64,000 nt of DNA, taken from assembly GCF_012912105.1 (NCBI RefSeq), contig NZ_QMEA01000047.1:1-64000 (forward strand). Direction: 5' to 3'. Shown here piece by piece: positions 40,681 to 54,955 of the stretch. Source of the DNA: Brasilonema sp. UFV-L1 (GTDB lineage Bacteria > Cyanobacteriota > Cyanobacteriia > Cyanobacteriales > Nostocaceae). Position numbers and translations under genes: made by a program. Each line of letters opens with the position of its first letter. Within the stretch, counting starts at the first letter, position 1. The notes under the pieces were generated by a model. It did not search any database, was not told the origin of the DNA, and was given only the letters and a program-made list of their open reading frames with translations.

Positions 40681-41376
40681 TTATGCTGCTTTGATTCCGT
40701 AGGCAGAAAGACGCATGATGTCGCGAGTGGAAAAACCGATGTTACTCAGGGCTTCTCCGTACTGTATCATAAAATCTTCTACTAAAGCTTCCTTTTCCAT
40801 CGCTAACTTACGGGCATCGTCCGCAACAGAGTTAAGCATTTTCCAGACAATTGGGAGGTTTTGGCGATTTGCTTGTTCTAATTCAGCTTTGGATTCTTCA
40901 AAGTGTTCTTTTAACCATACTTCTCCAAAGTTGAGATGACTATATTCATCTTTGACTACACCTTCAGTGATTTTACGAGCAAAATCATCTGCAACTGGGA
41001 TGTAAATGTTGTATGCGGCGATCGCAAAACATTCAATAATCAAAGATTGAATCAGCAAGCAAGTCACGACTTTCCCTTCAGCCGCTGCTTGTTGAAAATT
41101 TTGATGCAATTCGGCAAAAAATTCTTGAGCGAACTGCATATCCGGCGTCACCTGAAGATTGCGTCCACAGGCTTCAAATCCTTTCTTGTGACGGCTTTCC
41201 ATCTTAGCAAGACGATTGAGTTCATCTTGATGTTCGCTCAGCAGTTGTGCGAGTTTGATGTAATTTGCATGAGCTTCTTGTTCGCCTTCTATGACAATCG
41301 CATTAATGCGGCTGTAGGCGTCTTTGTATATTTCGCTGTGGAAGTCAATTTCAGATTGATTGACAAGCTGCTGCAT
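40681..41376 (-). CDS. ado: Aldehyde-deformylating oxygenase
   Basis: A di-iron, ferritin-like enzyme that converts fatty aldehydes (Cn) to alkanes (Cn-1) and formate. The 231-residue protein begins [20 protein letters not shown] and has the metal-ligand helices [24 protein letters not shown] (E-x-x-H), [14 protein letters not shown] and [13 protein letters not shown] (E-x-x-H). The start ATG 41376 matches the family's N-terminus; further in-frame codons upstream to 41475 are not conserved. It forms a pathway pair with aar downstream. Confidence 0.95.
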
Positions 41377-41770
41377 GATGCGTTCACTCCCGTGCTGTGA
41401 ATCATGTGATACCAAAATAAAGTTAACCTCATAAACCGAGGACAACATTAACTGTGGTTTAATTTTACTTAACAAGTCTCTATGTTATAGATTAGCTTTT
41501 GCTGGCGGCATTAGTTCAAGCTAATTCATCAGGAAAAGCAGGAAACGAGGAAACAGACGACAGATGGATAGATGATCAATCCAAAAGCCGAAATGCGTTG
41601 CAAGAGCGTGTACGTTGCGCTAGAGCTTTCTCGCGCATACACCTCCACCACCAGAGGTAACCTTGTGGGTAGCCCAGAATCTACGTTGAAATTTTCCGGC
41701 GTCCTAAAAGTTCCATGACTGGGTGCTGTTACTGTCTTGTGACCTTTAGTTGTGGTCTTGTTGACATCCT
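41377..41770. other. Intergenic region, no gene seen
   Basis: Holds the promoter side of ado. The part at 41580-41670 has repeat-like GC-rich words (GCGTTGCAAGAGCG, CTCGCGCATAC). It leads into the permease fragment. Confidence 0.35.
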
Positions 41771-42170: not shown

Positions 42171-45100
42171 TTATCTTCGCTCTTTAACCAGTTCAAACTT
42201 ACCTCCAACAACCTTAACAAGAACAGGTTTAGTTTGACTTTGCCCCTCTGAATCAAACTGTAAAATCTCTCCAGAAGTTTCGCTAGCTGTAATTTTTACA
42301 TCTTGGAGTTTTCTTATAACTGTTGAGCGGGAGGCATCAGGAGACAAAGCTTTAATCAAAGCCTGAGTTGCATCAAAACTAGCAGCTGTGCGCCAGCTAA
42401 TCTGTCCTCCCCATTGCTTCGCTGCTGCTTGTGCAAAGTTTTTTGATTGTGGTGCTTCCCTAAACCAGGGTATAGCTATAACCATACCTTCAACATCATT
42501 ACCACCTTTTTGCAAGGTTGTATTGCTATATAAAGCGTCCCCACCTAACAACATTAGTTTTTGTTTGTTGGAGTTTTTGAATCTAGCATTCCTCTTGGAA
42601 ACAATTGCAGCAACTTTGATCGCAATAGGAGTGCTTTGTGCGTCTGGAAATAACACAGCACCCTGTGTCTGGTAGCGATAGAAACTCTTTTCGACTTCTG
42701 TTTCTATATCCAATTGTGAATTTGTCAAATCAATCTTTTGAACAACTTGACCTTTTATTTCTTCAAATTTATTTGTAAATTCCTCTCTCAAACTACTGCT
42801 ATGGCTGCTATCAGGATTATAGAAAATAATAACATTGTTGATACCAAGAGACTTTTTGGCATACACTGCTAACTTCTCTCCAATAACAGCGTCAGAAGGT
42901 ACTGTCCGAAAGAAAACACCATTGTCTTTGTTATTCAACAATTTACTGGTACTAGTAGGAGAGATAATGGCTAAGTTAGCTTTTTTGTATGTATCTAATG
43001 CCGCTTTGGTAGCATCGCTAGTATTATGTCCAATCACTGCTAGTACAGCTTTGTCTTTCACCAATTCCTCAGCCACTTTTTGAGCTGTATCTGGTTTATT
43101 ATCATCACTGGCGATCGCAATTTCCAATAATCGACTATTTAATCCGCTTTTCTCATTAAACTGATTTTGTGCCTGAGCCACACCTCGCAATATTTCTTGA
43201 GCCATGTTTGTGTTGTCTGCTGGCACAACCACTGCTAGCGTGAAAGGATTACCCTGTTGCTTGGCACGGGCATTGTTGTAGTAAATCAGTACTTCTGGAT
43301 CACTGCGATTAGCGGTTGTAGCTGTTTTAAAATATCCTGCCGCATCAAAGTATTTGCCTTGTTGAAAAGCTTGAATACTCTGTTCTCGAGCAGAGTTTTT
43401 CAGCTTAGGGAAAAAGGTGCATTCACCACGACTAATCTTTTTTTCATCTGGTTTGCAACCAACATCAAATACCTTCTGTTGATCTACAGAATATCGCGGT
43501 GACACCTGATAAACACTAATACCAACAAGGGATAATATTCCTGTTGCTACCGCTATTGCAGCTATAGGAAATAATTGACTGTAAGACTTGTGGCTGTACT
43601 GACTACTATTACCTATCCTAGCCAATGCTCTGTTAGAGACAGTAGTTGAAATTGCGGATAAAAAGTTACTTTGTGGATTTCTTGTTGTAGATTCTGTTTC
43701 CCCTAAAATAATTTCTTGCAGTTTCTCCAATGCGATTGGGCTTTCATTGTCAATTTCCAAAATTTGCTTAAACTGCTCCTTTGCCTGTGTTAAATCTTGT
43801 TGCGCAAGCAAATTTTCTCCGTAAGTAGCAAGCGCACACAACAATCCATCTTTATAGCGTGCGGGATCAGCTTGGTAGACTCGTGTATATAGTTTTACGG
43901 CTTTGTCGAACTCATCTATCTCAAAGTACCCTTGAGCTAAAGCCACAACTGTACTGAAGTGATTGGGATTGAGCTTCAAAATCTGCTCATAAACAGCTAG
44001 TGCATTTTGTGTTTTGCCCTGTTCATACAATAGTCTTGCTTCTTGCAAGAGGAAATTAACTTTTTCTTCCTCTAAGTTCTGTAGTTGCCATATTACCTGC
44101 CGCAGAGGGTAACGTTTGACTAACCAACGGCGGATTAATTCAACTTTGACTTTATGTCCTGTACTGTCCAAAAAACCGTCTTTGGTTAACTGTTCTAGCG
44201 CTTGAACTAGTTGTTCTGTTTGGATAACTCCATAGCTTTTAAGCAGCATTAATGCTTCTTCTGAATCCTGCTGATCTAGCGCCGCTTTTTCTTGAGTCTG
44301 CGCCACAGCTGAAAACACTACCTGTTCTGGGATAGACAGTCCGTTCCAAAACCATGCCAGCCCCGCCTCGGCAAGCTCAATTGCTTTATTTACAATGCCC
44401 TCAACATCTTTGCGGTTGATACTCCAGTTTTGTAGTTCTCGCGCTCTTCCAAAAAGAGCAAAGCAAATGACTTGTGTAAAGTATGGATGTCCTGCAGACA
44501 GTTCTAAAATTGCTCGTATCGCATCTGGCTCGTATTCGAGCACACCTTGAGCGAGTTTAGTAATTAGCCGTTTAGCACTTGGCTCATCAAGCAAACCTAT
44601 TTCTTGGATAGGTGCTTCCTTAAATACTTCAAGTATAGTTGGCAGTTCTTCTGGTTTCTGTCCTACAAGTAGAATGATAAAGAGATTATTTGGTAAAGTG
44701 ATATTGCGTAGATAAGGGAAAATATTTTTAACTAATGACTTAGATTCTTCTGTTGTTAAACTATCAAATTCATCTAGTAATAATACTAGTTTCTTGTCTT
44801 GTAATTCTTTAAAAACTTGAGGTAAAAATTGGCTAGAAAAAATATATGGTTCTGTTTCTAAATCTGTAGTTAAAGGTAGCTTTATATTATCTTCATCTAG
44901 TTCAAGGTAGTCTAATATCTCTGTCGCGAGTGCCACTAAGATATTACTGAGAGATTTACCACTTTGGTCTTGTAAATCGAAGGGAACAAAGACAAAGCTA
45001 TCTGGTGCAACAAAGTTAGGAATATTACGAAGTACAGAGGACTTGCCAATGCGTCGTTGACCGTGTAACAAGATAACCTTGACATTTTGTCTTAGGTTGT

Positions 45101-45215
45101 CTTCAATAAAACCGAACAGAGCTTCTCGTCCAAATATCAATTCCGGTTCATCGATTGGGCGACCAATGATGTAAGGATTGCGCCGAGTCGTTGAATAGGT
45201 CATAATAGTTCCCAA
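42171..45215 (-). CDS. Transmembrane STAND-type NTPase receptor with periplasmic LivJ-like ligand-binding domain, copy 2
   Basis: A 1014-residue protein with an unusual architecture. Residues about 12-380: STAND-type NTPase (NPYIIGRPIDE, FGRE; Walker A GQRRIGKS at 52-59; Walker B KLVLLLDEFD at 142-151; GHPYFTQVICFAL; then a winged-helix part). About 385-510: TPR-like repeats (AVYEQILKLNPNHFSTVVAL). About 545-570: one transmembrane helix (IAAIAVATGILSLVGISVY). About 575-650: a cysteine-containing linker with one more TPR-like hairpin. About 655-1014: a type I periplasmic-binding fold like LivJ/receptor family (LAVVVPADNTNMAQEILRGV, AVIGHNTSDATKAALD, AIISPTSTS, FFRTVPSD, GMVIAIPWF). N-in/C-out topology would place the ligand domain outside. 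No transporter genes are near, so signalling is more likely than uptake. The start may be ATG 45215 or ATG 45203. Confidence 0.85.
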   Translation of the reverse strand: MGTIMTYSTTRRNPYIIGRPIDEPELIFGREALFGFIEDNLRQNVKVILLHGQRRIGKSSVLRNIPNFVAPDSFVFVPFDLQDQSGKSLSNILVALATEILDYLELDEDNIKLPLTTDLETEPYIFSSQFLPQVFKELQDKKLVLLLDEFDSLTTEESKSLVKNIFPYLRNITLPNNLFIILLVGQKPEELPTILEVFKEAPIQEIGLLDEPSAKRLITKLAQGVLEYEPDAIRAILELSAGHPYFTQVICFALFGRARELQNWSINRKDVEGIVNKAIELAEAGLAWFWNGLSIPEQVVFSAVAQTQEKAALDQQDSEEALMLLKSYGVIQTEQLVQALEQLTKDGFLDSTGHKVKVELIRRWLVKRYPLRQVIWQLQNLEEEKVNFLLQEARLLYEQGKTQNALAVYEQILKLNPNHFSTVVALAQGYFEIDEFDKAVKLYTRVYQADPARYKDGLLCALATYGENLLAQQDLTQAKEQFKQILEIDNESPIALEKLQEIILGETESTTRNPQSNFLSAISTTVSNRALARIGNSSQYSHKSYSQLFPIAAIAVATGILSLVGISVYQVSPRYSVDQQKVFDVGCKPDEKKISRGECTFFPKLKNSAREQSIQAFQQGKYFDAAGYFKTATTANRSDPEVLIYYNNARAKQQGNPFTLAVVVPADNTNMAQEILRGVAQAQNQFNEKSGLNSRLLEIAIASDDNKPDTAQKVAEELVKDKAVLAVIGHNTSDATKAALDTYKKANLAIISPTSTSKLLNNKDNGVFFRTVPSDAVIGEKLAVYAKKSLGINNVIIFYNPDSSHSSSLREEFTNKFEEIKGQVVQKIDLTNSQLDIETEVEKSFYRYQTQGAVLFPDAQSTPIAIKVAAIVSKRNARFKNSNKQKLMLLGGDALYSNTTLQKGGNDVEGMVIAIPWFREAPQSKNFAQAAAKQWGGQISWRTAASFDATQALIKALSPDASRSTVIRKLQDVKITASETSGEILQFDSEGQSQTKPVLVKVVGGKFELVKERR

Positions 45216-45275
45216 TTTACTAAGCTACTGGTCGTCTTATAGTAAAGAACAGTTTCAGATCATCCTGGTTCATCT

Positions 45276-48200
45276 TTACTCTTGCACTAATTTAAATTTA
45301 CCTCCAAAAACCTTAACAAGGACAGGTTTATTTTGCCTTTCTCCTTCTGAATCAAACTGTAAAGTTTCTCCAGAAGTTTCGCTAGCTTTAACTGTTAGAT
45401 CTTGATTTTTTAGATTTATCATAACTGTTGACCTATTGGCACTGGGACGTAAAGCTTTAATCAAAGCCTGAGTAGCATCAAAACTAGTAGCTGTGCGCCA
45501 GCTAACTGGTCCTCCCCATTGCTTCTGTGCTGCTTGTGCAAAGTTTTTTGATTGTGGTGCTTCCCTAAACCAGGGAACTGCTAGAATCAAGCCTTCAATA
45601 GATTTTTCGCCTTGTTGCAAATTTTTATCACTATATAGGGCATCCCCACCCAACAACTTTAGCTCTTTTCGCCCTTGGTTGTTAGTTCGGTTTTTAAGTT
45701 TAGTATTGATCTCGGCAACAAGTGAGGCAAACTCGAGTGCCTTAGAAGTGCTTTCCGTGCCTGGAAATAACACAGCGGCTTGTGCGTTGTCTTGTTGATA
45801 CACACTGTTTTCAAGTTCATCTTTCCACTCATTTAGTTTTGAGTGCTTTAAATCAATTTTCTTAACAACTCTATTCCTTAATGGCTCTTCAAATTTCTTT
45901 GTAAATTCCTCTCTCAAACTGTTGCTATAGCTGTTACCGGAATTATAGAAAATGACAACATTGTTGATACCAAGGGACTTTTTAGCATACGTGGCTAACT
46001 TCTCTCCAGTAGCAGCATCAGAAGGTACCGTCCGAAAGAAAACACCATTGTCGCTGTCATTCAATAATGTGCTGGTACTAGTGGGAGAGATGATGGCTAA
46101 GTTAGCGTTTCTGTATGTATCTAATGCCTCTTTGGTAGCATCGCTAGTGTTATGTCCAATCACTGCCAGTACAGAAGAGTCTGAGTATTTTACCAATTTC
46201 TCAGCCACTTTTTTAGCTATATCTTGTGTGTTATCATCATCACTGGCGATCGCAATTTCCAATAATTGACCATTTAATCCCCCTTTCTCATTGAATTGAT
46301 TTTGTGCCTGCGCCACACCTCGCAATATTTCTTGAGCCTGATCTTCTTGTTTTGCTGGCACAACCACTGCTAGTGTGAAAGGATTACCCTGTTGCTTAGC
46401 ACGGGCATTGTTGTAGTAAATTAGTACTTCTGGATCTTTAGGTTGACTAGGCTGAACCGTCAAAGCTCTTTTAAAGAATTCTTCAGCTTTAGAGTATTTG
46501 GCTTCTTGGAAAGCTTGAAGACCCTGGTCACGAGCAGGGTTTTTAATATTAATAAAGAAGGTGCGTTCACCACGACTAATCTTTCTTTCATCTAGTTTGC
46601 AACCAACATAAAATACCTTCTGTTGACCTGCAGAACATGGCGTTGACACCCGATAAACACCAATACCAGCAAGAGCAATTATTCCGATCACTGCTGCTGT
46701 ACTCCGTATCGGAATTCGCCAACGCAAATGTGGAACAATCCACTCGCTTGGTAGGGCTGGCTGTAGTGATCCTTGAGTTGCAGCACTAGCTTCAATATGA
46801 GAGATTTCTTGCAGCTTCTTTTGTGCTAATTGGTGTCCAGGCTCAATTTTCAAGACTCGATTAAACTGCTCCTTTGCTTGTGTTAAATCTCGTTGTGCGA
46901 ACAAATTTTCTCCGTAGGTAGTGAGCGCACGCAACAGCCCATCTTTGTTACGTGCGGGATCAACTTGGAAAGCTCGCGTGTATAGTTCCACGGCTTTGTC
47001 GATCTCTTTCACCTCCAAGTATCCTTGAGCCAGATTCGCTACTGTACTGAAGTGATTAGGATTGAGCGTCAAAATTTGCTCATACACACCCAGTGCATTT
47101 TGTGTTTCGCCCCTTTGACGCAGTGCCTTTGCTTCTTCTAAAAGGCGATTAATTTCTTCTTGCTCAAGAGTCTCCAATTCCAATATCGCTTGCCGCAAAG
47201 GATGACGTTTGATTAACCAACGGCGAACTAATTCAACTTTGACTCTACGCCCCGTATCATCCAAGAAACTATTGTTCTTGTTGGCACCACTTAGTTGGTT
47301 AGCTGCTTGATTTAAGGACTCTGTTTGGACTCCATAGCTTTTGAGCAGCACTAAAGGGTCTTCTGGAAGCCTCTGGCTGTTGGCGATCGCTATGCTTTGC
47401 GCTTGCGCCACAGCAGAAAAAACGACTTGCTCTTGGGTAGGCAGTCCTTTCCAATACCAGTCCAACCCACCTTCAGCACTCTCAATTGCTTTAGTTACAA
47501 TATTATTTACATCGTTGGGAGTGACATGCGATTTGTTTTCATCTCTTGCTTGCTGGAAAACAGCATGACATATGACTTGAGTAAAATAGGGATGTCCTGC
47601 TGATAGATCTAGAATTGCTTTTATTGCATCCTGGTCGTATTCGAGCTGATCCCGAGCTGGTTTAGAAATGAGCCGTTTAGCACTGAGTTCTTCGAGCAAA
47701 CCAATTTCGTTGACTGGTGCATGTCCAAACAAATGAAGCAGCTTTGGCATATCATTCAGACTCCGTCCCACTACTGGAATGATGAATAATTTTTCGTGCT
47801 GCTCAATCAGTTCTTTTAGATACGCAAAGAAATGCATATCTGCTTGCCGCTCTTCTCCTTGAGTGTGGACATCATCACTTAAAACATCAAATTCATCCAG
47901 TAATAACACCAGATTTTTCTCACGCAATTCCTGATGCACTCGTGCTAAGAAGTTCTGAGAAAAGATGTTTGCTTCTAACTCTGTAGCTGAGAGCAAGAGT
48001 AGCACACTATTTTCAGTATTTAAGTGCTCCAGGCATTCGAGGTCGAGGATTTCTGTTGCAAGTGAGTGCAAAATCTGACTGAGGGAGAGCGAAGCTTTAT
48101 CTTGAAGGTCAAAGTTTACAAAAACAAACTCATTGAACTCCCTCTGCTGAAAAAATAAGGGAATTTGTCTTAGTACAGATGACTTACCGATACGCCGTTG

Positions 48201-48347
48201 ACCGTGTAGTAAGATAACCTTGACATTTTGTACCAGATTGTCCTCAATGAAACCGAATAGACCTTCCCGCCCGAAGAAAAATTCTTCTTCATCGATTGGA
48301 CGACCAATGATATAAGGATTTCTTTGTTGATTTCTCCCACTCATCAC
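45276..48347 (-). CDS. Transmembrane STAND-type NTPase receptor with periplasmic LivJ-like ligand-binding domain, copy 1
   Basis: A 1023-residue paralogue of the downstream gene with the same order: NTPase (Walker A GQRRIGKS at 49-56, Walker B NLVLLLDEFD about 145-154, GHPYFTQVICHAVF), TPR-like repeats (about 390-515), one transmembrane helix (about 543-565, AAVIGIIALAGIGVY), short TPR-like linker, and the LivJ-like binding domain (about 652-1023). The binding domains of both copies are nearly identical in long blocks (RGVAQAQNQFNEK, PWFREAPQSKNFAQAA), while NTPase loops and the membrane-proximal region differ more. It is 18 bases downstream of the soluble STAND gene and 60 bases upstream of copy 2, so the three are probably one transcript. 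The ligand could be an amino acid, small amide or unknown; that is inference. Confidence 0.85.
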   Translation of the reverse strand: MMSGRNQQRNPYIIGRPIDEEEFFFGREGLFGFIEDNLVQNVKVILLHGQRRIGKSSVLRQIPLFFQQREFNEFVFVNFDLQDKASLSLSQILHSLATEILDLECLEHLNTENSVLLLLSATELEANIFSQNFLARVHQELREKNLVLLLDEFDVLSDDVHTQGEERQADMHFFAYLKELIEQHEKLFIIPVVGRSLNDMPKLLHLFGHAPVNEIGLLEELSAKRLISKPARDQLEYDQDAIKAILDLSAGHPYFTQVICHAVFQQARDENKSHVTPNDVNNIVTKAIESAEGGLDWYWKGLPTQEQVVFSAVAQAQSIAIANSQRLPEDPLVLLKSYGVQTESLNQAANQLSGANKNNSFLDDTGRRVKVELVRRWLIKRHPLRQAILELETLEQEEINRLLEEAKALRQRGETQNALGVYEQILTLNPNHFSTVANLAQGYLEVKEIDKAVELYTRAFQVDPARNKDGLLRALTTYGENLFAQRDLTQAKEQFNRVLKIEPGHQLAQKKLQEISHIEASAATQGSLQPALPSEWIVPHLRWRIPIRSTAAVIGIIALAGIGVYRVSTPCSAGQQKVFYVGCKLDERKISRGERTFFINIKNPARDQGLQAFQEAKYSKAEEFFKRALTVQPSQPKDPEVLIYYNNARAKQQGNPFTLAVVVPAKQEDQAQEILRGVAQAQNQFNEKGGLNGQLLEIAIASDDDNTQDIAKKVAEKLVKYSDSSVLAVIGHNTSDATKEALDTYRNANLAIISPTSTSTLLNDSDNGVFFRTVPSDAATGEKLATYAKKSLGINNVVIFYNSGNSYSNSLREEFTKKFEEPLRNRVVKKIDLKHSKLNEWKDELENSVYQQDNAQAAVLFPGTESTSKALEFASLVAEINTKLKNRTNNQGRKELKLLGGDALYSDKNLQQGEKSIEGLILAVPWFREAPQSKNFAQAAQKQWGGPVSWRTATSFDATQALIKALRPSANRSTVMINLKNQDLTVKASETSGETLQFDSEGERQNKPVLVKVFGGKFKLVQE

Positions 48348-48365
48348 ACTTTTCTTCCTTTGTCC

Positions 48366-49751
48366 TTACATCCAGTTAAACAAGCCTTGAATGGCTCCTT
48401 TCGGAAAAGCAGCTGATAACTTACCAAACAATTCAAGGGCAGAGGATATCTCTTGTGTATGGTTCCACAACCAGCGAATTGCTTGTGTGACGTTCTTAGT
48501 TTGTTCGTGACTCATCAAGTTGAGAAACACCTTTCGCCGTTTTTCGAGTGATTCATTATTTGTATTCCTCAGTTCTTGAATCACCCACTCCTCCATAAGT
48601 GATGATGTGAAAGAGAGTATCTTTTTATTTCCTTGTTCTGTACGGATACCCACGCGTTTTTCGTGTATATTTGTCACCTTTCCTTGTTCTACTAATTCTG
48701 TACGCGTGATTACGCCCTGTTCTTCTAAATTCGTCAATTCTCGCTCTTTTTGGCTGAAGATGATGTCAAGATCGCTTAAGTCATAGCTTTCCTCATTCAA
48801 ACGACCTTTCAAACCATATAAAGCTATCAGCATCAATAAACTTTGCTCTTCTTCACTGCACCTGTCCCAAATGTTTTGAAAAATCTGTCTCGTATCGCTT
48901 TTAAATTCTCTGGCAAAAGCTGTGGCAAAGGCTTGAGCATCCATTGCTGTCCCTTGTGCAGTTCGTAGCTTTCTGTACAAGAGAGAACCAGCATTTTGTA
49001 GCAGAGCTGGATGTCCACCTGCAATTTCTCGAATGATGTCCCGTAGTGGTTGTGATTCAGGTGTCTGTGGTGCTATGCCAAGTAGTTGCTCAGCTTCTTG
49101 CTCAGTAAGTAGTTTCAATGACTGGAAGAGATAATGGTTATACCACGGAGAACTGGCTGGACTCAGGGGAGGACCAAGTTCATTGAGGCGCATGAGCGAG
49201 GTAACAATCATTGAGAGATTTCTCTCCTTAGAGTGGTAAGCCAAGTTACGGCACTCGCTTAAGAATGTCACCATATCGGCTTCCGTGTATTGCTTATTTT
49301 CCTGGAGAGCTGCATCATAGTCATCTACTAGCAGCACTAAGGATTTTCCTTTCCTTCCTAGCTTCCGCAGTATTTGGCGCAAACAATCTTTCGTTGTTAG
49401 TCCTTGTGCCAACAATGTCTCAATCTCAGTCTGCAAGTCGGGTTCAATATCCAACTGATCCCTCATACCACTCAAAACTTCTCTCCAAAAACCAGAGGGA
49501 GTGAAAGGATTAATGCTCTGACAACTAAAAAGAACAATCACTATCTTCGATAAATCTTCTCCACGTTCTTCCCAAACTTGGGGTGAAGCTAGTTTCTCCA
49601 AAAAAGAGGACTTACCCATTCCAGCCCCACCCCAAATTGCTAAGTGACTGCGATTGAAAATTTGATCAAATGCAGCATCAATTTCAGATTTCCGTCCTAC
49701 AAAACTTTCTGGAGGAACTGGCTGTCCTACGATAAAAGGATTTTTTCCCAT
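48366..49751 (-). CDS. Soluble STAND-type NTPase, first gene of the receptor cluster
   Basis: A 461-residue NTPase with the same N-terminal signature as its neighbours (NPFIVGQPVPPESFVGRK), Walker A GGAGMGKSS (41-49), Walker B SLVLLVDDYD (about 139-148), a sensor-like SMIVTSLMRL, and GGHPALLQNAGSLLYRKL (about 250). A winged-helix region follows (about 290-400), and the last 60 residues form a helical tail ending in AFPKGAIQGLFNWM that I do not recognise as a known effector. No TPR, membrane helix or ligand domain is present. It may be a signalling partner of the two membrane receptors, through mixed STAND oligomers, but this is inference from operon position and shared N-terminal motif. Confidence 0.8.
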   Translation of the reverse strand: MGKNPFIVGQPVPPESFVGRKSEIDAAFDQIFNRSHLAIWGGAGMGKSSFLEKLASPQVWEERGEDLSKIVIVLFSCQSINPFTPSGFWREVLSGMRDQLDIEPDLQTEIETLLAQGLTTKDCLRQILRKLGRKGKSLVLLVDDYDAALQENKQYTEADMVTFLSECRNLAYHSKERNLSMIVTSLMRLNELGPPLSPASSPWYNHYLFQSLKLLTEQEAEQLLGIAPQTPESQPLRDIIREIAGGHPALLQNAGSLLYRKLRTAQGTAMDAQAFATAFAREFKSDTRQIFQNIWDRCSEEEQSLLMLIALYGLKGRLNEESYDLSDLDIIFSQKERELTNLEEQGVITRTELVEQGKVTNIHEKRVGIRTEQGNKKILSFTSSLMEEWVIQELRNTNNESLEKRRKVFLNLMSHEQTKNVTQAIRWLWNHTQEISSALELFGKLSAAFPKGAIQGLFNWM

Positions 49752-51979: not shown

Positions 51980-53515
51980 ATGGCTCGCACGCCCACACTA
52001 ACCTTTGATCGTGGCACATTAATTTTGCATCCACCACCACGCGGTAGGGCTTGGATGGATTTTGCTACATGGGATGATAGAGTAGAAAAATTCCGCATTC
52101 CGGCTATTCATTACCGTGCTTTGGTGGAAGCAATGCAAGCGGAAGATACGAACTTTGTTGATGAAGCTAAGGGGTTTTATCCGATAGAGTTGGTTCCTAG
52201 CCTAGAAATGGAACCTTACCCTCATCAAAGTGAGGCGTTAGCAGCTTGGAAACTCGCGGGAAGACAAGGAGTCGTGGTGCTTCCCACCGCAGCCGGAAAG
52301 ACGTATCTAGCACAAATGGCGATGCAAGCGACGCCACGCACAACACTGATTGTTGTTCCAACACTGGATTTAATGCATCAGTGGTATGCTCATTTGAAGG
52401 CGGCTTTTCCTGATGCTGAGGTTGGTTTGCTGGGTGGTGGTTCGCGAGATAGAACACCTGTACTTGTTGCCACTTACGATAGTGCGGCTATCCATGCAGA
52501 AAGTTTGGGAAATCTGTATGCTTTGTTAATTTTTGATGAATGTCATCATTTGCCAACAGATTTTAGTCGCGTGATTGCAGAATATGCGATCGCACCCTAT
52601 CGTCTAGGACTTTCCGCTACACCAGAACGAACTGATGGTAAACACGCTGACTTGAATATTTTAATAGGGAAAGAAGTTTACCGTAAAAGGGCTGAAGATT
52701 TAGCGGGGAAGGCGCTAGCAGAACATGAAGTTGTGCAAATTAAGGTGAAATTATCACAACATGAACGGGAGAAATACACTCAATTGATTCAAGTTCGCAA
52801 CGACTTTTTGAAGGAATCAAAGATTTCTTTGGGGAGTCTTCAAGGGTGGCAGAGATTTGTGCAAATGAGTGCGCGATCGCAAGCCGGGCGTAGAGCTATG
52901 TTAGCGCACCGGTCAGCGAAAGAAATTGCTTTGGGTACTGATGGGAAGATAAGAGTTCTTGCTGATATATTAACAGAACATTATCCAGAAAGAGTTTTGA
53001 TTTTTACTGCTGATAATGCAACAGTTTACCGTATTTCTCAAGAGTTTCTTGTTCCAGCTATTACCCATCAAACTCCTGTAAAGGAACGACATGAGATATT
53101 AACAAAGTTTCGGGAGGGAGAGTTTAAAACTTTGGTTGCTTCTCATGTGTTGAATGAAGGTGTTGATGTTCCTGCGGCTTCTGTCGCGATTATTTTATCT
53201 GGTACTGGTTCGACACGGGAGTATATTCAAAGATTGGGCAGGGTTTTAAGAAAGGGTAAGGATAATAAGAAGCAGGCGATTTTGTACGAGGTGGTGGCGG
53301 AGGATACGAGTGAGGAGGGGACTTCGGCGAGGAGAAGAGGTGTGGAGAGAAACGAACCGCAAAGACGCGAAGGACACGAAGGAAAGAGGGAGAAGAAAGG
53401 GAATTTACAGGTTATTTATGGGAGTGGGAAGGAAAGGAGTCTTAAGGCTGCTGAACAGTTGGAGATAAATTATAAAGTTCAAAAGAAACCACCGATAAAT
53501 ACGGATGAAAGCTGA
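51980..53515 (+). CDS. XPB/Rad25-type superfamily 2 DNA helicase
   Basis: A 511-residue SF2 helicase of the XPB type that acts in DNA repair with Bax1-like nucleases. Motifs: an N-terminal damage-recognition-like part (1-70), then PYPHQSEALAAW (Q-like), Walker A PTAAGKT (about 100), DECHH (motif II, about 180), LSATPERTDGKH (motif III), a thumb-like insertion (about 235-300), VLIFTADN (IV), LVASHVLNEGVDVPAAS (V), and QRLGRVLRKGK (VI). Start ATG 51980. Near 53350-53390 the C-terminal tail (RRRGVERNEPQRREGHEG) is encoded by an intergenic-type repeat, so the protein end is altered in this lineage. The nuclease partner follows at 53741. Confidence 0.9.
   Translation: MARTPTLTFDRGTLILHPPPRGRAWMDFATWDDRVEKFRIPAIHYRALVEAMQAEDTNFVDEAKGFYPIELVPSLEMEPYPHQSEALAAWKLAGRQGVVVLPTAAGKTYLAQMAMQATPRTTLIVVPTLDLMHQWYAHLKAAFPDAEVGLLGGGSRDRTPVLVATYDSAAIHAESLGNLYALLIFDECHHLPTDFSRVIAEYAIAPYRLGLSATPERTDGKHADLNILIGKEVYRKRAEDLAGKALAEHEVVQIKVKLSQHEREKYTQLIQVRNDFLKESKISLGSLQGWQRFVQMSARSQAGRRAMLAHRSAKEIALGTDGKIRVLADILTEHYPERVLIFTADNATVYRISQEFLVPAITHQTPVKERHEILTKFREGEFKTLVASHVLNEGVDVPAASVAIILSGTGSTREYIQRLGRVLRKGKDNKKQAILYEVVAEDTSEEGTSARRRGVERNEPQRREGHEGKREKKGNLQVIYGSGKERSLKAAEQLEINYKVQKKPPINTDES
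53350..53390. repeat. AACCGCAAAGACGCGAAGGAC-type repeat inside the helicase gene
   Basis: This is the type of sequence seen between genes in filamentous cyanobacteria; the complementary form CCTTTGCGCTCTTTGCGTCC lies only 250 bases further on (about 53598-53633) in the gap before the nuclease gene. Here it is read in frame as a charged tail of the helicase. Confidence 0.6.
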
Positions 53516-53597
53516 TAATATTGCAATAATTATAGGAACATCCCAATGCATGTAAAAATTCCAGGACTTACTCAAAAACTCTTTTAAACTCTCTTAC

Positions 53598-53633
53598 CTT
53601 TGCGCTCTTTGCGTCCTTTGCGGTTTATTATTT
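53598..53633. repeat. CTTTGCG-type repeat between helicase and nuclease genes
   Basis: CCTTTGCGCTCTTTGCGTCC followed by TTTGCGGTTTATTA contains three TTTGCG words. It is the opposite orientation of the repeat within the helicase gene. Confidence 0.55.
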
Positions 53634-53740
53634 TATTCTCCTGCTCCCGTCTCAATACAAGATAACAGTAAACTTGTACACTTGGAATGTTTTCATGATT
53701 ATCTATATTTATCTGCGTTGTTCTGCGGTTCAAAATTTCA

Positions 53741-54955
53741 ATGTTACCAACAGAGTTACTAAGTCATAGGCAAAATGGGGAAGAGATTATCCCGAAGAGA
53801 TTGAAGATTGATGATAAGAATTTGGCGACGGCGACTGAGTTAACAACGACTTTTCAGAAAGCGGTAGGTGAGACTCAGGGTTCGCTTGAACGTCAGTTGT
53901 CGGAGTTGGAGGGAGATACTCCGGATTATAGGGAGAAGCGGGGTTTGGCTTATATCCTTAAAAGCAGTTTCTGTACGTTTGAGGTGGTGAGTCCTTTGGA
54001 ACCTCAAATGTTACGAGAAAGGGTTTTTGCTTTGGCGGCTAAGTCTCCTCCGAGTCGGGAGTTGACAGAAATGACTTTAACAAAGGTTGCTGATGAATTG
54101 AGTCATGAACTTGAGCGCGAAGTTTTACCGAAACAAGTTCGTGAGGGGTTATATGCGGATTTGTCTGAAAATAAAATTTTAACTGCTTTTGATGCACCAG
54201 CGGCTCATGAATTATTGCATCGATACAATTTATCTCAGGTGCAGGGGGTGTTTTATAAGGCGAGTCAGTTGGTGATCAATGCTCATCGCAATGTTCCTGG
54301 ACAATATAAGCTTTTGTTTCGCTATCTCAAGTTGTTTCAATTAATGTCTTATATTGAGGGAGATGCTGACCACGGGTTTACAATTACGATTGATGGTCCG
54401 ACGAGTTTGTTTACTCCTAGTACGCGGTATGGTTTGGCTATAGCTAAGCTGATTCCAGCTTTACTTCATGTCACCAAATGGAGTCTTTCTACAACGTTGC
54501 AAATTCGTGATACGTACACAAATACATGGAAAACTGGAAGGTTTACTCTCAATTCTGAATGCGGTTTGGTGTCTCATTATTCAACGGGTAAGCCATACGA
54601 TAGTATGTTGGAAGAGTCTTTTGCTGATAAGTGGGAGTCGATGAAAACGGATTGGGTGTTAGAGCGAGAAGTTGACTTAATTCCCATTCCTGGAAGTGTA
54701 ATGATTCCCGATTTTAGATTAGTTCATCCTGATGGACGAACATTTTTATTAGAAATAGTTGGTTATTGGCGACCAGAATATTTACAAAAGAAGTTTTCAC
54801 AAGTGCGGCGTGCTGAATGTCAGAACTTAATTTTGGCGATTTCTGAGCGATTGAATTTGGATAAAGCAGGAGTGAAATTAAATGATGTGCCTGCTCGAAT
54901 TGTTTGGTTTAAAGATAAATTGTTGCCGAAAGCAGTATTAGCAGTCATGGAATAA
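53741..54955 (+). CDS. Bax1-like DUF790 nuclease, partner of XPB helicase
   Basis: A 404-residue DUF790 protein. In archaea Bax1 binds XPB and cuts DNA near bubbles. The N-terminal part (MLPTELLSHRQNGEEIIPKRL) and central helical domain are typical; the C-terminal PD-(D/E)xK core is visible as VMIPDFRLVHPDGRTFLLEIVGYW with the expected Asp and Glu, followed by RPEYLQKKF. Its position 225 bases downstream of the helicase on the same strand supports joint function; bacterial pairs are usually adjacent. Start ATG 53741; no strong ribosome-binding site is visible. Confidence 0.88.
   Translation: MLPTELLSHRQNGEEIIPKRLKIDDKNLATATELTTTFQKAVGETQGSLERQLSELEGDTPDYREKRGLAYILKSSFCTFEVVSPLEPQMLRERVFALAAKSPPSRELTEMTLTKVADELSHELEREVLPKQVREGLYADLSENKILTAFDAPAAHELLHRYNLSQVQGVFYKASQLVINAHRNVPGQYKLLFRYLKLFQLMSYIEGDADHGFTITIDGPTSLFTPSTRYGLAIAKLIPALLHVTKWSLSTTLQIRDTYTNTWKTGRFTLNSECGLVSHYSTGKPYDSMLEESFADKWESMKTDWVLEREVDLIPIPGSVMIPDFRLVHPDGRTFLLEIVGYWRPEYLQKKFSQVRRAECQNLILAISERLNLDKAGVKLNDVPARIVWFKDKLLPKAVLAVME

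What the first reader, a model, noticed from the sequence alone, without database searches (positions are those of the whole stretch)
42171..49751. Three-gene cluster of STAND NTPases, two fused through a membrane helix to periplasmic ligand-binding domains
Seen: three same-strand genes with 18- and 60-base gaps, all with the same N-terminal NP(F/Y)I(V/I)G motif and Walker A/B boxes. Two carry TPR repeats, one transmembrane helix and a LivJ-like periplasmic-binding domain. Known: STAND ATPases are signal switches in immunity and regulation; LivJ-like domains bind small ligands outside the cell and occur in transporters and receptors. Inference: an external small molecule is sensed directly by a STAND machine, with a soluble STAND NTPase as partner. 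That is a one-piece sensor that I do not know as a described system. No ABC transporter gene is nearby, arguing against uptake.
Basis: partly seen in the sequence, partly recalled or inferred. Interest (0 to 1): 0.8.

Follow-up and report, generated by a model that had tools for sequence, protein, structure and literature searches.

The report
Paired cyanobacterial receptors driving STAND ATPases
Some cyanobacteria appear to carry a three-gene receptor: two membrane proteins that hold an amino-acid-binding-type domain outside the cell are joined to ATP-powered signalling switches inside it, next to the gene of a partner ATPase, and in most cases their outer domains have been kept alike while their inner parts drifted apart.

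Summary
Three same-strand genes (gaps 60 and 18 bases) encode a soluble STAND-type ATPase (P3) and two paralogues with STAND NTPase (CORE), TPR repeats, one hydrophobic segment and a LivJ-like domain. They are not neighbours by chance: of 79 cyanobacterial loci found with P3, 74 have CORE within 700 bases downstream, and 38 hold CORE fused to the binding domain. P3 is sometimes fused to CORE. The outer module also sits on Ser/Thr kinases, a caspase, a CHAT protease and AAA_35 ATPases, so it behaves as a plug-in receptor half.

New result: in 25 three-gene loci the two NTPases are mostly old, distinct paralogues, but the two outer domains of a locus tend to be homogenised (22 of 25 at synonymous sites; AU tests show different histories). 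The distal copy decays more: Walker A lysine lost in 4 of 25 (proximal 0), all four pocket residues intact in 10 of 25 (proximal 21), and in five further loci the third gene keeps a membrane segment but no binding domain.

Best reading: a ligand-gated, asymmetric membrane receptor that switches a STAND/P3 ATPase machine. Ligand, topology, output and complex formation are untested.

The parts
48366..49751 (-). P3: soluble STAND/ORC-type ATPase (461 aa), partner gene, first of the three
   Evidence: AF2 model pLDDT 88.0; Foldseek top hits 2qen (archaeal Walker-type ATPase, TMt 0.61) and 2fna, then ORC/Cdc6 chains
45276..48347 (-). proximal receptor subunit (p2, 1023 aa): CORE STAND NTPase + TPR + TM + linker + LivJ-like ectodomain; starts with GTG
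47193..48347 (-). p2 NTPase and following helical (probably winged-helix) region, residues 1-385
   Evidence: motifs; model
46788..47162 (-). p2 TPR repeats, residues 396-520
   Evidence: Pfam; helices
46647..46715 (-). p2 predicted transmembrane segment, residues about 545-567
   Evidence: hydropathy; modelled with pLDDT under 50 and without a helix
46383..46646 (-). p2 post-membrane Cys pair (C571, C583) and TPR-like linker with the DPExxIYYNN motif, residues 568-655
   Evidence: conservation; hairpin and three helices
45279..46382 (-). p2 LivJ-like Venus-flytrap domain, residues 656-1023
   Evidence: Pfam; Foldseek 4q6b TMt 0.91; pocket residues
42171..45215 (-). distal receptor subunit (p1, 1014 aa), same architecture; starts with TTG; pocket Tyr replaced by His, first post-membrane Cys replaced by Tyr (its two ectodomain Cys are residues 587 and 599)
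44067..45215 (-). p1 NTPase and following helical region (approximate)
43746..44057 (-). p1 TPR repeats (approximate)
43518..43574 (-). p1 predicted transmembrane segment, residues 548-566
42174..43205 (-). p1 LivJ-like domain, residues 671-1014

Best explanation
The operon encodes an asymmetric membrane receptor. Each large protein is anchored by one helix, with its STAND NTPase and TPR repeats in the cytoplasm and a LivJ-type Venus-flytrap domain in the periplasm. A small, probably amino-acid-like ligand closes the flytrap, mainly in the proximal subunit. The change passes through the TPR-like linker and the helix and releases the STAND NTPase from its resting state. The activated proximal and distal NTPases and the soluble ATPase P3 then form the signalling assembly. 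The two ectodomains act together (matched pair or dimer) and are therefore kept alike, while the NTPases have separate roles: the proximal one catalytic and ligand-responsive, the distal one accessory. Shown by computation: architecture, linkage with P3, modular reuse of the receptor half, separate histories of the two halves in most loci, and asymmetric decay. Inferred: membrane topology, ligand class, heteromer, switch mechanism. Unknown: the output; no dedicated effector gene was found beside the receptor-type loci.
For: CORE starts within 700 bases after P3 in 74 of 79 loci (the other five: one without CORE, one contig end, three without a stand-alone P3), median gap 34 bases, 61 of 74 at most 100; both junctions overlap by 4 bases in L097. 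P3 is fused behind CORE in nine loci. In 58 relatives (59 genomes with the own one), 9 have P3 near full length, in one or two ORFs, each beside CORE; in the reverse search with p2, the listed matches that reach into the first 300 residues at E under 1e-30 come from these 9 and the own genome. The linker and binding module is fused to kinase, caspase, CHAT and AAA_35 domains, so CORE stands where enzymes stand elsewhere. The ectodomain is as conserved as the NTPase (mean pairwise identity 0.53 against 0.50). Pocket equivalents over 40 proteins: S735 38, T758 as T or S 36, Y807 36, D902 29; Cys after the membrane segment 37 and 38. CORE tree: proximal/distal label needs 4 changes against 17.0 shuffled; ectodomain tree 17 against 17.0. 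AU p 9.5e-5, 3.4e-4 and 0.0021. Fourfold-site identity within loci 0.50 (NTPase) against 0.70 (ectodomain), between loci 0.43 and 0.45; Wilcoxon p 1.8e-5, p 0.014 and 9 of 11 when grouped. Longest identical DNA run is in the ectodomain in 21 of 25 loci, up to 600, 476 and 243 bases. Distal decay.
Against: The TM region is modelled with pLDDT under 50 and no helix. K/R bias fits N-inside in 34 of 63 proteins, ties in 18, opposes in 11; both window proteins tie. No complex was predicted. Homogenisation is not seen in L118, L120 and L127; in L127 the NTPases are the more alike, in L117 both halves are about equally alike. By plain identity the closest ectodomain is the same-locus one in only 18 of 50 (NTPase 5 of 50). 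36 of the 74 adjacent loci have no intact CORE-PBP gene, so the ectodomain is optional to the P3/CORE pair. The pocket mapping of D902 rests on a very weak alignment. p1 and p2 barely pass one Pfam NTPase cut-off. The loci were found with P3, so linkage is tested from the P3 side except.
Confidence: 0.58

Rival explanations
1. Paired receptors rather than one heteromer: p1 and p2 form separate homomers that see the same ligand and send different signals, as paired immune receptors of mammals do; ectodomains are kept alike so that both see the same ligand.
For: Same tree and synonymous-site results. Gene conversion around ligand-binding regions joined to different signalling parts is described for mammalian paired receptors (PMC2832619, passages).
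Against: In five loci the third gene keeps a TM but has no binding domain, and distal pockets are less often intact (10 against 21 of 25; loci not independent), which suits a dependent subunit better than an independent receptor.
Confidence: 0.18
2. A conflict or cell-death system: the ectodomain detects a danger or invader cue and the STAND/P3 machine triggers suicide or defence.
For: The same ectodomain is fused to caspase and CHAT (caspase-annotated matches on plasmids). One CORE carries NNH3 and pentapeptide repeats. Sparse distribution: 13 of 292 genomes, own included. Related themes in PMC7159879 (passages and two sections).
Against: PADLOC gave nothing strong for the three proteins (best 1.3e-4). 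No vWA, MoxR, nuclease, TIR or pore family is listed for the three genes (lists of p1 and p2 capped at 25 families). No relative of P3 on plasmids or viral contigs.
Confidence: 0.17
3. Neutral explanation of the matched ectodomains: tandem repeats convert by chance, and conversion hits the most similar part most, with no meaning for function.
For: The linker and binding domain are the most conserved parts, which favours conversion; some loci show long identical runs (600, 476 and 243 bases).
Against: NTPase halves lie equally close and are 38-80% identical, yet are rarely homogenised; the two NTPase types stay apart in 21 of 25 loci.
Confidence: 0.12
4. Orphan transport or scavenging: the fused binding domain serves uptake with an ABC permease encoded elsewhere.
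For: Best structural matches are ABC transporter binding proteins.
Against: No ABC gene among 27 scanned window ORFs. The domain is tethered to an NTPase in one protein, and the same module sits on kinases and proteases.
Confidence: 0.04

Closest known systems
Ser/Thr kinases with ANF-receptor/periplasmic-binding domain (Nostoc sp. PCC 7120; PMC1262709, passages)
   Same: Signalling enzyme plus LivJ/ANF-type binding domain in one protein; the same outer module is found on kinases here
   Different: Kinase instead of STAND NTPase; no partner ATPase mentioned in the passages read
Metacaspase with ANF-receptor domain (Nostoc punctiforme in PMC2853523; also listed among cyanobacterial architectures in PMC3501461; passages)
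   Same: Protease plus the same type of ectodomain; a caspase-PBP relative is seen here (L036)
   Different: Protease instead of STAND NTPase; no paired paralogue mentioned in the passages read
EACC1 two-gene system ('System 4', PMC7159879, section read)
   Same: Two-gene membrane system with instances of TM plus PBP domain in the variable position, and STAND NTPases among other variants
   Different: Defined by the EACC1 gene and an N-terminal caspase (or cNMP cyclase), prevalent in actinobacteria; no caspase or cyclase in the three genes here
Class C receptor Venus-flytrap domains (mGlu, CaSR)
   Same: Fold of the ectodomain (mGlu8, mGlu5 and CaSR chains among the Foldseek hits); dimeric receptors with non-equivalent subunits exist (recalled)
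   Different: Seven-helix membrane part and G-protein coupling (recalled); here one predicted helix and a STAND NTPase
XssQ, STAND transcription activator of Synechocystis (PMC8205485, passages)
   Same: STAND signalling in a cyanobacterium
   Different: Carries a DNA-binding domain and is fed by XssS/XssR; no ectodomain mentioned

Membership tests
STAND NTPases | hhGRExE-type motif before Walker A (definition recalled) | tested here: inconclusive
   G26 39, R27 40, E28 30 of 40, but no E at the last place; FFGREGLF in p2
STAND NTPases | Walker A and Walker B | tested here: met
   K55 37 of 40, D151 and E152 40 of 40; all three window genes intact
STAND NTPases | GxP motif after the NTPase (definition recalled) | tested here: met
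   G251 39, H252 40, P253 40 of 40; GGHP in P3
STAND NTPases | Winged-helix domain after the NTPase | tested here: inconclusive
   CORE: helices at 284-393 in the model, not searched alone. P3: whole-chain matches to 2qen, 2fna and ORC/Cdc6 with modest TM-scores, 0.48 or less by query
STAND NTPases | C-terminal superstructure repeats | tested here: met
   TPR in p1 and p2; none found in P3
LivJ-type (HAAT) binding proteins | Sequence family and fold | tested here: met
   Peripla_BP_6 above cut-off; 4q6b TMt 0.91
LivJ-type (HAAT) binding proteins | Partner ABC permease and ATPase genes nearby | tested here: not met
   None in 27 of 47 window ORFs scanned
EACC1 System 4 | N-terminal caspase or cyclase | tested here: not met
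   none listed for the three genes
EACC1 System 4 | EACC1 gene upstream | not tested
   no EACC1 model at hand
MoxR-vWA ternary conflict systems | MoxR ATPase plus vWA protein | tested here: not met
   No vWA or MoxR family listed for the cluster, the gene after it or the three genes before it
Known anti-phage systems (PADLOC) | Strong match to a model | tested here: not met
   Best E 1.3e-4 over residues 39-99 of p2; none for p1; 0.0025 for P3
PBP-ectodomain receptor enzymes of cyanobacteria | Linker and binding module homologous to that on kinases or caspases | tested here: met
   p2 matches from about residue 584-607 to 1016 in kinase, caspase, CHAT and AAA_35 fusions
Ligand-gated receptor | Binds an extracellular ligand and changes NTPase state | not testable with these tools
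   needs purified protein

The most novel reading that the evidence does not exclude
A bacterial receptor class in which two Venus-flytrap subunits, kept matched by gene conversion of their outer domains, feed one asymmetric STAND/P3 ATPase assembly across the membrane: an NLR-like switch fitted with a class-C-receptor-like ectodomain, reading amino-acid-like signals in the periplasm of filamentous cyanobacteria.
Probability: 0.35. Interest if true: 0.85.

Novelty: new variant of a known kind. Interest (0 to 1): 0.66.

Why it matters
STAND switches are known mainly as cytosolic sensors (recalled). A direct, one-protein link from a periplasmic ligand domain to a STAND NTPase, with a dedicated partner ATPase, would give an experimentally handy system in which the trigger can be added from outside. 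Homogenised ectodomains on diverged NTPases point to a subunit interaction or shared ligand that can be tested at the bench. The receptor half is shared with caspase, CHAT and kinase proteins, so one ligand screen could shed light on a whole set of uncharacterised cyanobacterial receptors, some of which may control cell death.

Tried and rejected
Chance neighbours: rejected. Transporter: unlikely. Member of the EACC1 or MoxR-vWA systems: caspase, vWA and MoxR not listed. Known defence system: PADLOC weak. Mobile-element cargo: P3 gave no match at E 1e-10 in 72,556 plasmid records; of 18 pattern matches in viral contigs none was a relative; p2 matched 5 plasmid records, by its outer part only. 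Conserved effector neighbour: 531 flanking ORFs were clustered and the 14 widest clusters looked at. The two widest (18 and 17 loci) look like MetF and TrpS (recalled) and lie beside loci whose CORE has no binding domain; the others span 5 to 9 loci. One of 7 loci, four of them receptor-type, looks like a Ser/Thr kinase (recalled) and was not followed up. Promoter scan: 13 sites against 18.7 in shuffles, not informative. Split receptor kinases: 4 of 13 stand-alone binding proteins tested showed a kinase-motif ORF just upstream, within short flanks. Identical runs were cut short by gaps against the window sequence; one search replaces them.

Print searches for a STAND-TM-PBP system: (open-licence library only); none described it in what was listed or read. 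One search looked for conversion in bacterial receptors. I read passages of PMC7159879 (and its sections 20 and 33), PMC2853523, PMC8195603, PMC1262709, PMC3501461, PMC8205485, PMC10907252 and PMC2832619; the rest only as listings.
Full report
OBSERVATION. The two large proteins carry TPR repeats and a Peripla_BP_6 domain well above Pfam's cut-off, but only just pass one NTPase family (AAA_22, 27.1 against 27 bits); the small one matches AAA_22 and just passes NACHT. The STAND-like motifs are strongly conserved: over 40 aligned large proteins Walker A K 37, Walker B D and E 40 each, GxP (GHP) 39-40, GR of the N-terminal motif 39 and 40. The window lies in an 8.3 Mb genome in 337 contigs. The same-genus genome G006 holds a 5429-base contig with the same ORF set as the 5429-base record of Scytonema sp. 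RU_4_4, so a Scytonema-like cyanobacterium is likely; this is an inference.

STRUCTURE. An AlphaFold2 model of p2 from 40 sequences has mean pLDDT 85.5; residues 526-568, which hold most of the predicted membrane segment, are under 50 and not helical. Foldseek puts the C-terminal domain with leucine-type binding proteins (4q6b, complex with Leu, TMt 0.91) and then with mGlu and CaSR ectodomains. The P3 model (pLDDT 88.0) matches two archaeal ATPases (2qen, 2fna), ORC/Cdc6 chains and an entry on regulation of the maltose system (8bob), with modest TM-scores. Between membrane and binding domain lies a small hairpin with two conserved cysteines and a three-helix, TPR-like linker with the motif DPExxIYYNN, invariant at P639, E640, I643, Y644, N646 and N647 in 40 of 40. 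Hydropathy supports a segment before the linker in 61 of 63 proteins; charge bias fits N-inside in 34, ties in 18 (both window proteins included), opposes in 11.

LIGAND POCKET. By the alignments, p2 S735 and T758 correspond to LivJ S79 and T102 (their ligand roles are recalled). Y807 aligns with the Tyr of an SYGNGL stretch in 4mlc; its equivalence to LivJ Y150 is recalled. D902 lies in a GGD stretch that aligns with 4gnr, in a segment of no significance by itself. Conservation over 40: S735 38, T758 as T or S 36, Y807 36, D902 29. This suggests an amino-acid-like ligand; it is an inference.

LINKAGE. Of 59 genomes searched (own and 58 relatives), 58 have some match to p2; most of the listed matches cover only its outer part, and the list was cut. 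P3 matches in 20 of 59 at E 0.001, own included. Nine relatives (G001, G004, G006, G007, G008, G009, G023, G028, G029) have it near full length, all with CORE beside it; in G001, G004 and G006 P3 is split into two ORFs. Fragments of P3 beside receptor fragments occur in G023 (second locus) and G026. A scan of one genome for each of 84,980 species with the P3 alignment gave 124 pattern matches, 84 relatives, 80 kept, 79 loci, all assigned to Cyanobacteriota. Of the 79: 74 have CORE within 700 bases downstream (median gap 34, 61 at most 100, 4 overlapping), 1 has none (L138), 1 ends (L100), 3 lack a stand-alone P3 (L119, L155, L165). 38 contain CORE-PBP; 25 are P3, CORE-PBP, CORE-PBP, some with a shortened last domain. 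P3 was found in 13 of 292 genomes drawn over the phylum at E 1e-30, own included, so the set is sporadic.

MODULARITY. With P3 in front, CORE carries different C-termini: PBP; another P3; Ser/Thr kinase (L112, L126); two GAF (L161); a KAP-like P-loop domain (L142, L145, and L073, the same contig as L163 by length); NNH3 with a weakly matched second NTPase and pentapeptides (L078, the same contig as L166 by length); or short helical tails. I scanned representatives, not all 30 loci with CORE only. Conversely the linker and binding module is fused to AAA_35 (L003, L017, L020), kinases (L007, L021, L024, L034), a caspase (L036) and, in the window's own genome, a CHAT protease with two binding domains (L083). 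So CORE sits where other proteins carry an enzyme with a signalling role. This is the main argument that the ectodomain feeds CORE.

SEPARATE HISTORIES. For 24 loci with exactly two complete CORE-PBP genes above stricter cut-offs, plus the window, I built trees of the NTPase part and of the linker plus binding part. NTPase: the proximal/distal label needs 4 changes (shuffled mean 17.0; 0 of 500 as low); 21 of 25 distal rows form one supported clade, the exceptions being L101, L117, L127 and L129. Ectodomain: 17 changes, as in shuffles (17.0); the window's own two ectodomains are sisters at 100/100. AU tests: the ectodomain data reject the 21 distal rows as one clade (p 9.5e-5; group taken from the CORE tree), the NTPase data reject the window pair (3.4e-4) and the L132 pair (0.0021) as clades. 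At fourfold sites under identical residues, identity within loci is 0.50 (NTPase) and 0.70 (ectodomain), higher in 22 of 25 (not in L118, L120, L127), Wilcoxon p 1.8e-5; between loci it is 0.43 and 0.45, so codon constraint does not explain it. In the window: 47 of 87 against 102 of 127, Fisher p 7.0e-5. Grouped into 11 lineages: 9 of 11, p 0.014. The longest identical DNA run is in the ectodomain in 21 of 25 loci; L099, L132 and L105 reach 600, 476 and 243 bases there against 25, 14 and 26 in the NTPase, the window 48 against 21. The simplest reading is repeated gene conversion limited to the outer half. Against: by plain identity the closest ectodomain is the same-locus one in only 18 of 50 rows (NTPase 5 of 50), so in many loci the homogenisation is old or partial, and L127 shows the reverse pattern.

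ASYMMETRY. Walker A lysine: proximal 25 of 25, distal 21 of 25 (lost in L101, L117, L127, L129). All four pocket residues intact: proximal 21, distal 10 of 25 (Fisher p 0.003, loci not independent). In the window p1 has H for Y807 and Y for C571; its Walker A is intact. In L102, L147, L154, L162 and L171 the third gene keeps a TM but has no binding domain; L162 still shows cysteines after the membrane segment and the start of the linker, so there it looks like loss. This is what one expects of a dependent subunit, but paired homomers remain possible.

MECHANISM AND LIMITS. I propose that ligand closure in the matched outer domains changes their packing and releases the STAND NTPases to assemble with P3. 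The output is unknown. In heterocyst-forming species the periplasm is thought to be continuous along the filament (recalled), so amino-acid signals from neighbouring cells are an attractive but untested input.

KNOWN AND NEW. Kinase and metacaspase proteins with this kind of ectodomain are in print (PMC1262709, PMC2853523, PMC3501461; passages), and TM plus PBP occurs in the EACC1 caspase system (PMC7159879, section 33). I found no description of the STAND version, its P3 partner, or matched ectodomains in bacteria in the searches named under Tried and rejected; the library lacks most subscription papers. Matched ectodomains by conversion are known for mammalian paired receptors (PMC2832619, passages). 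Hence a new variant of a known kind.

Noticed in passing
window 51980-54955 (+): XPB-type helicase with XPB_DRD domain next to a DUF790 protein that resembles endonuclease Bax1 below NCBIfam's cut-off: a helicase-nuclease repair pair known from archaea (recalled), here in a cyanobacterium.
   Followed up: no
L083 1962-5681 (-), own genome contig C326: CHAT protease + TM + two linker/binding modules in one 1239-aa protein, next to a DUF1822 gene (TM seen by eye).
   Followed up: partly
L036 1444-4083 (-); plasmid hits H2 and H5: Caspase fused to the same outer module in a same-genus genome; caspase-annotated matches to the outer module on cyanobacterial plasmids.
   Followed up: no
L068 11348-12672, L069 4505-5827, L070 3912-5267: P3 split into two ORFs (about 265 and 173 aa) at the same place in three same-genus genomes, with gaps of 2, 3 and 36 bases; could be decay or a real two-chain form.
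   Followed up: partly
L098, L109, L119, L125, L140, L141, L155, L160, L173: CORE-P3 fusion proteins; seven of the nine lie directly behind a stand-alone P3.
   Followed up: partly
L082, L090, L091, L093, L094, L095: Distant (about 25% identical) P3-like gene before a 790-866-aa protein with a CORE-like NTPase at its C-terminus (P3-like gene in two pieces in L091): the two-ATPase pairing may be much wider.
   Followed up: no
L146, L150, L151, L074: CORE without TM, with a helical tail that ends in an LPxxxxL-rich sequence; L146, L150 and L151 share a gene context.
   Followed up: no
flanks of L098, L117, L133, L146, L148, L167, L173: A cluster of related ORFs that look like Ser/Thr kinases (recalled) lies near seven P3 loci; possible output partner or chance.
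   Followed up: no
window 40681-41475 (-): Long-chain fatty aldehyde decarbonylase gene downstream of the operon on the same strand.
   Followed up: no
L078 4155-8423 (+): CORE joined to NNH3, a second NTPase-like stretch and pentapeptide repeats in one 1422-aa protein.
   Followed up: no
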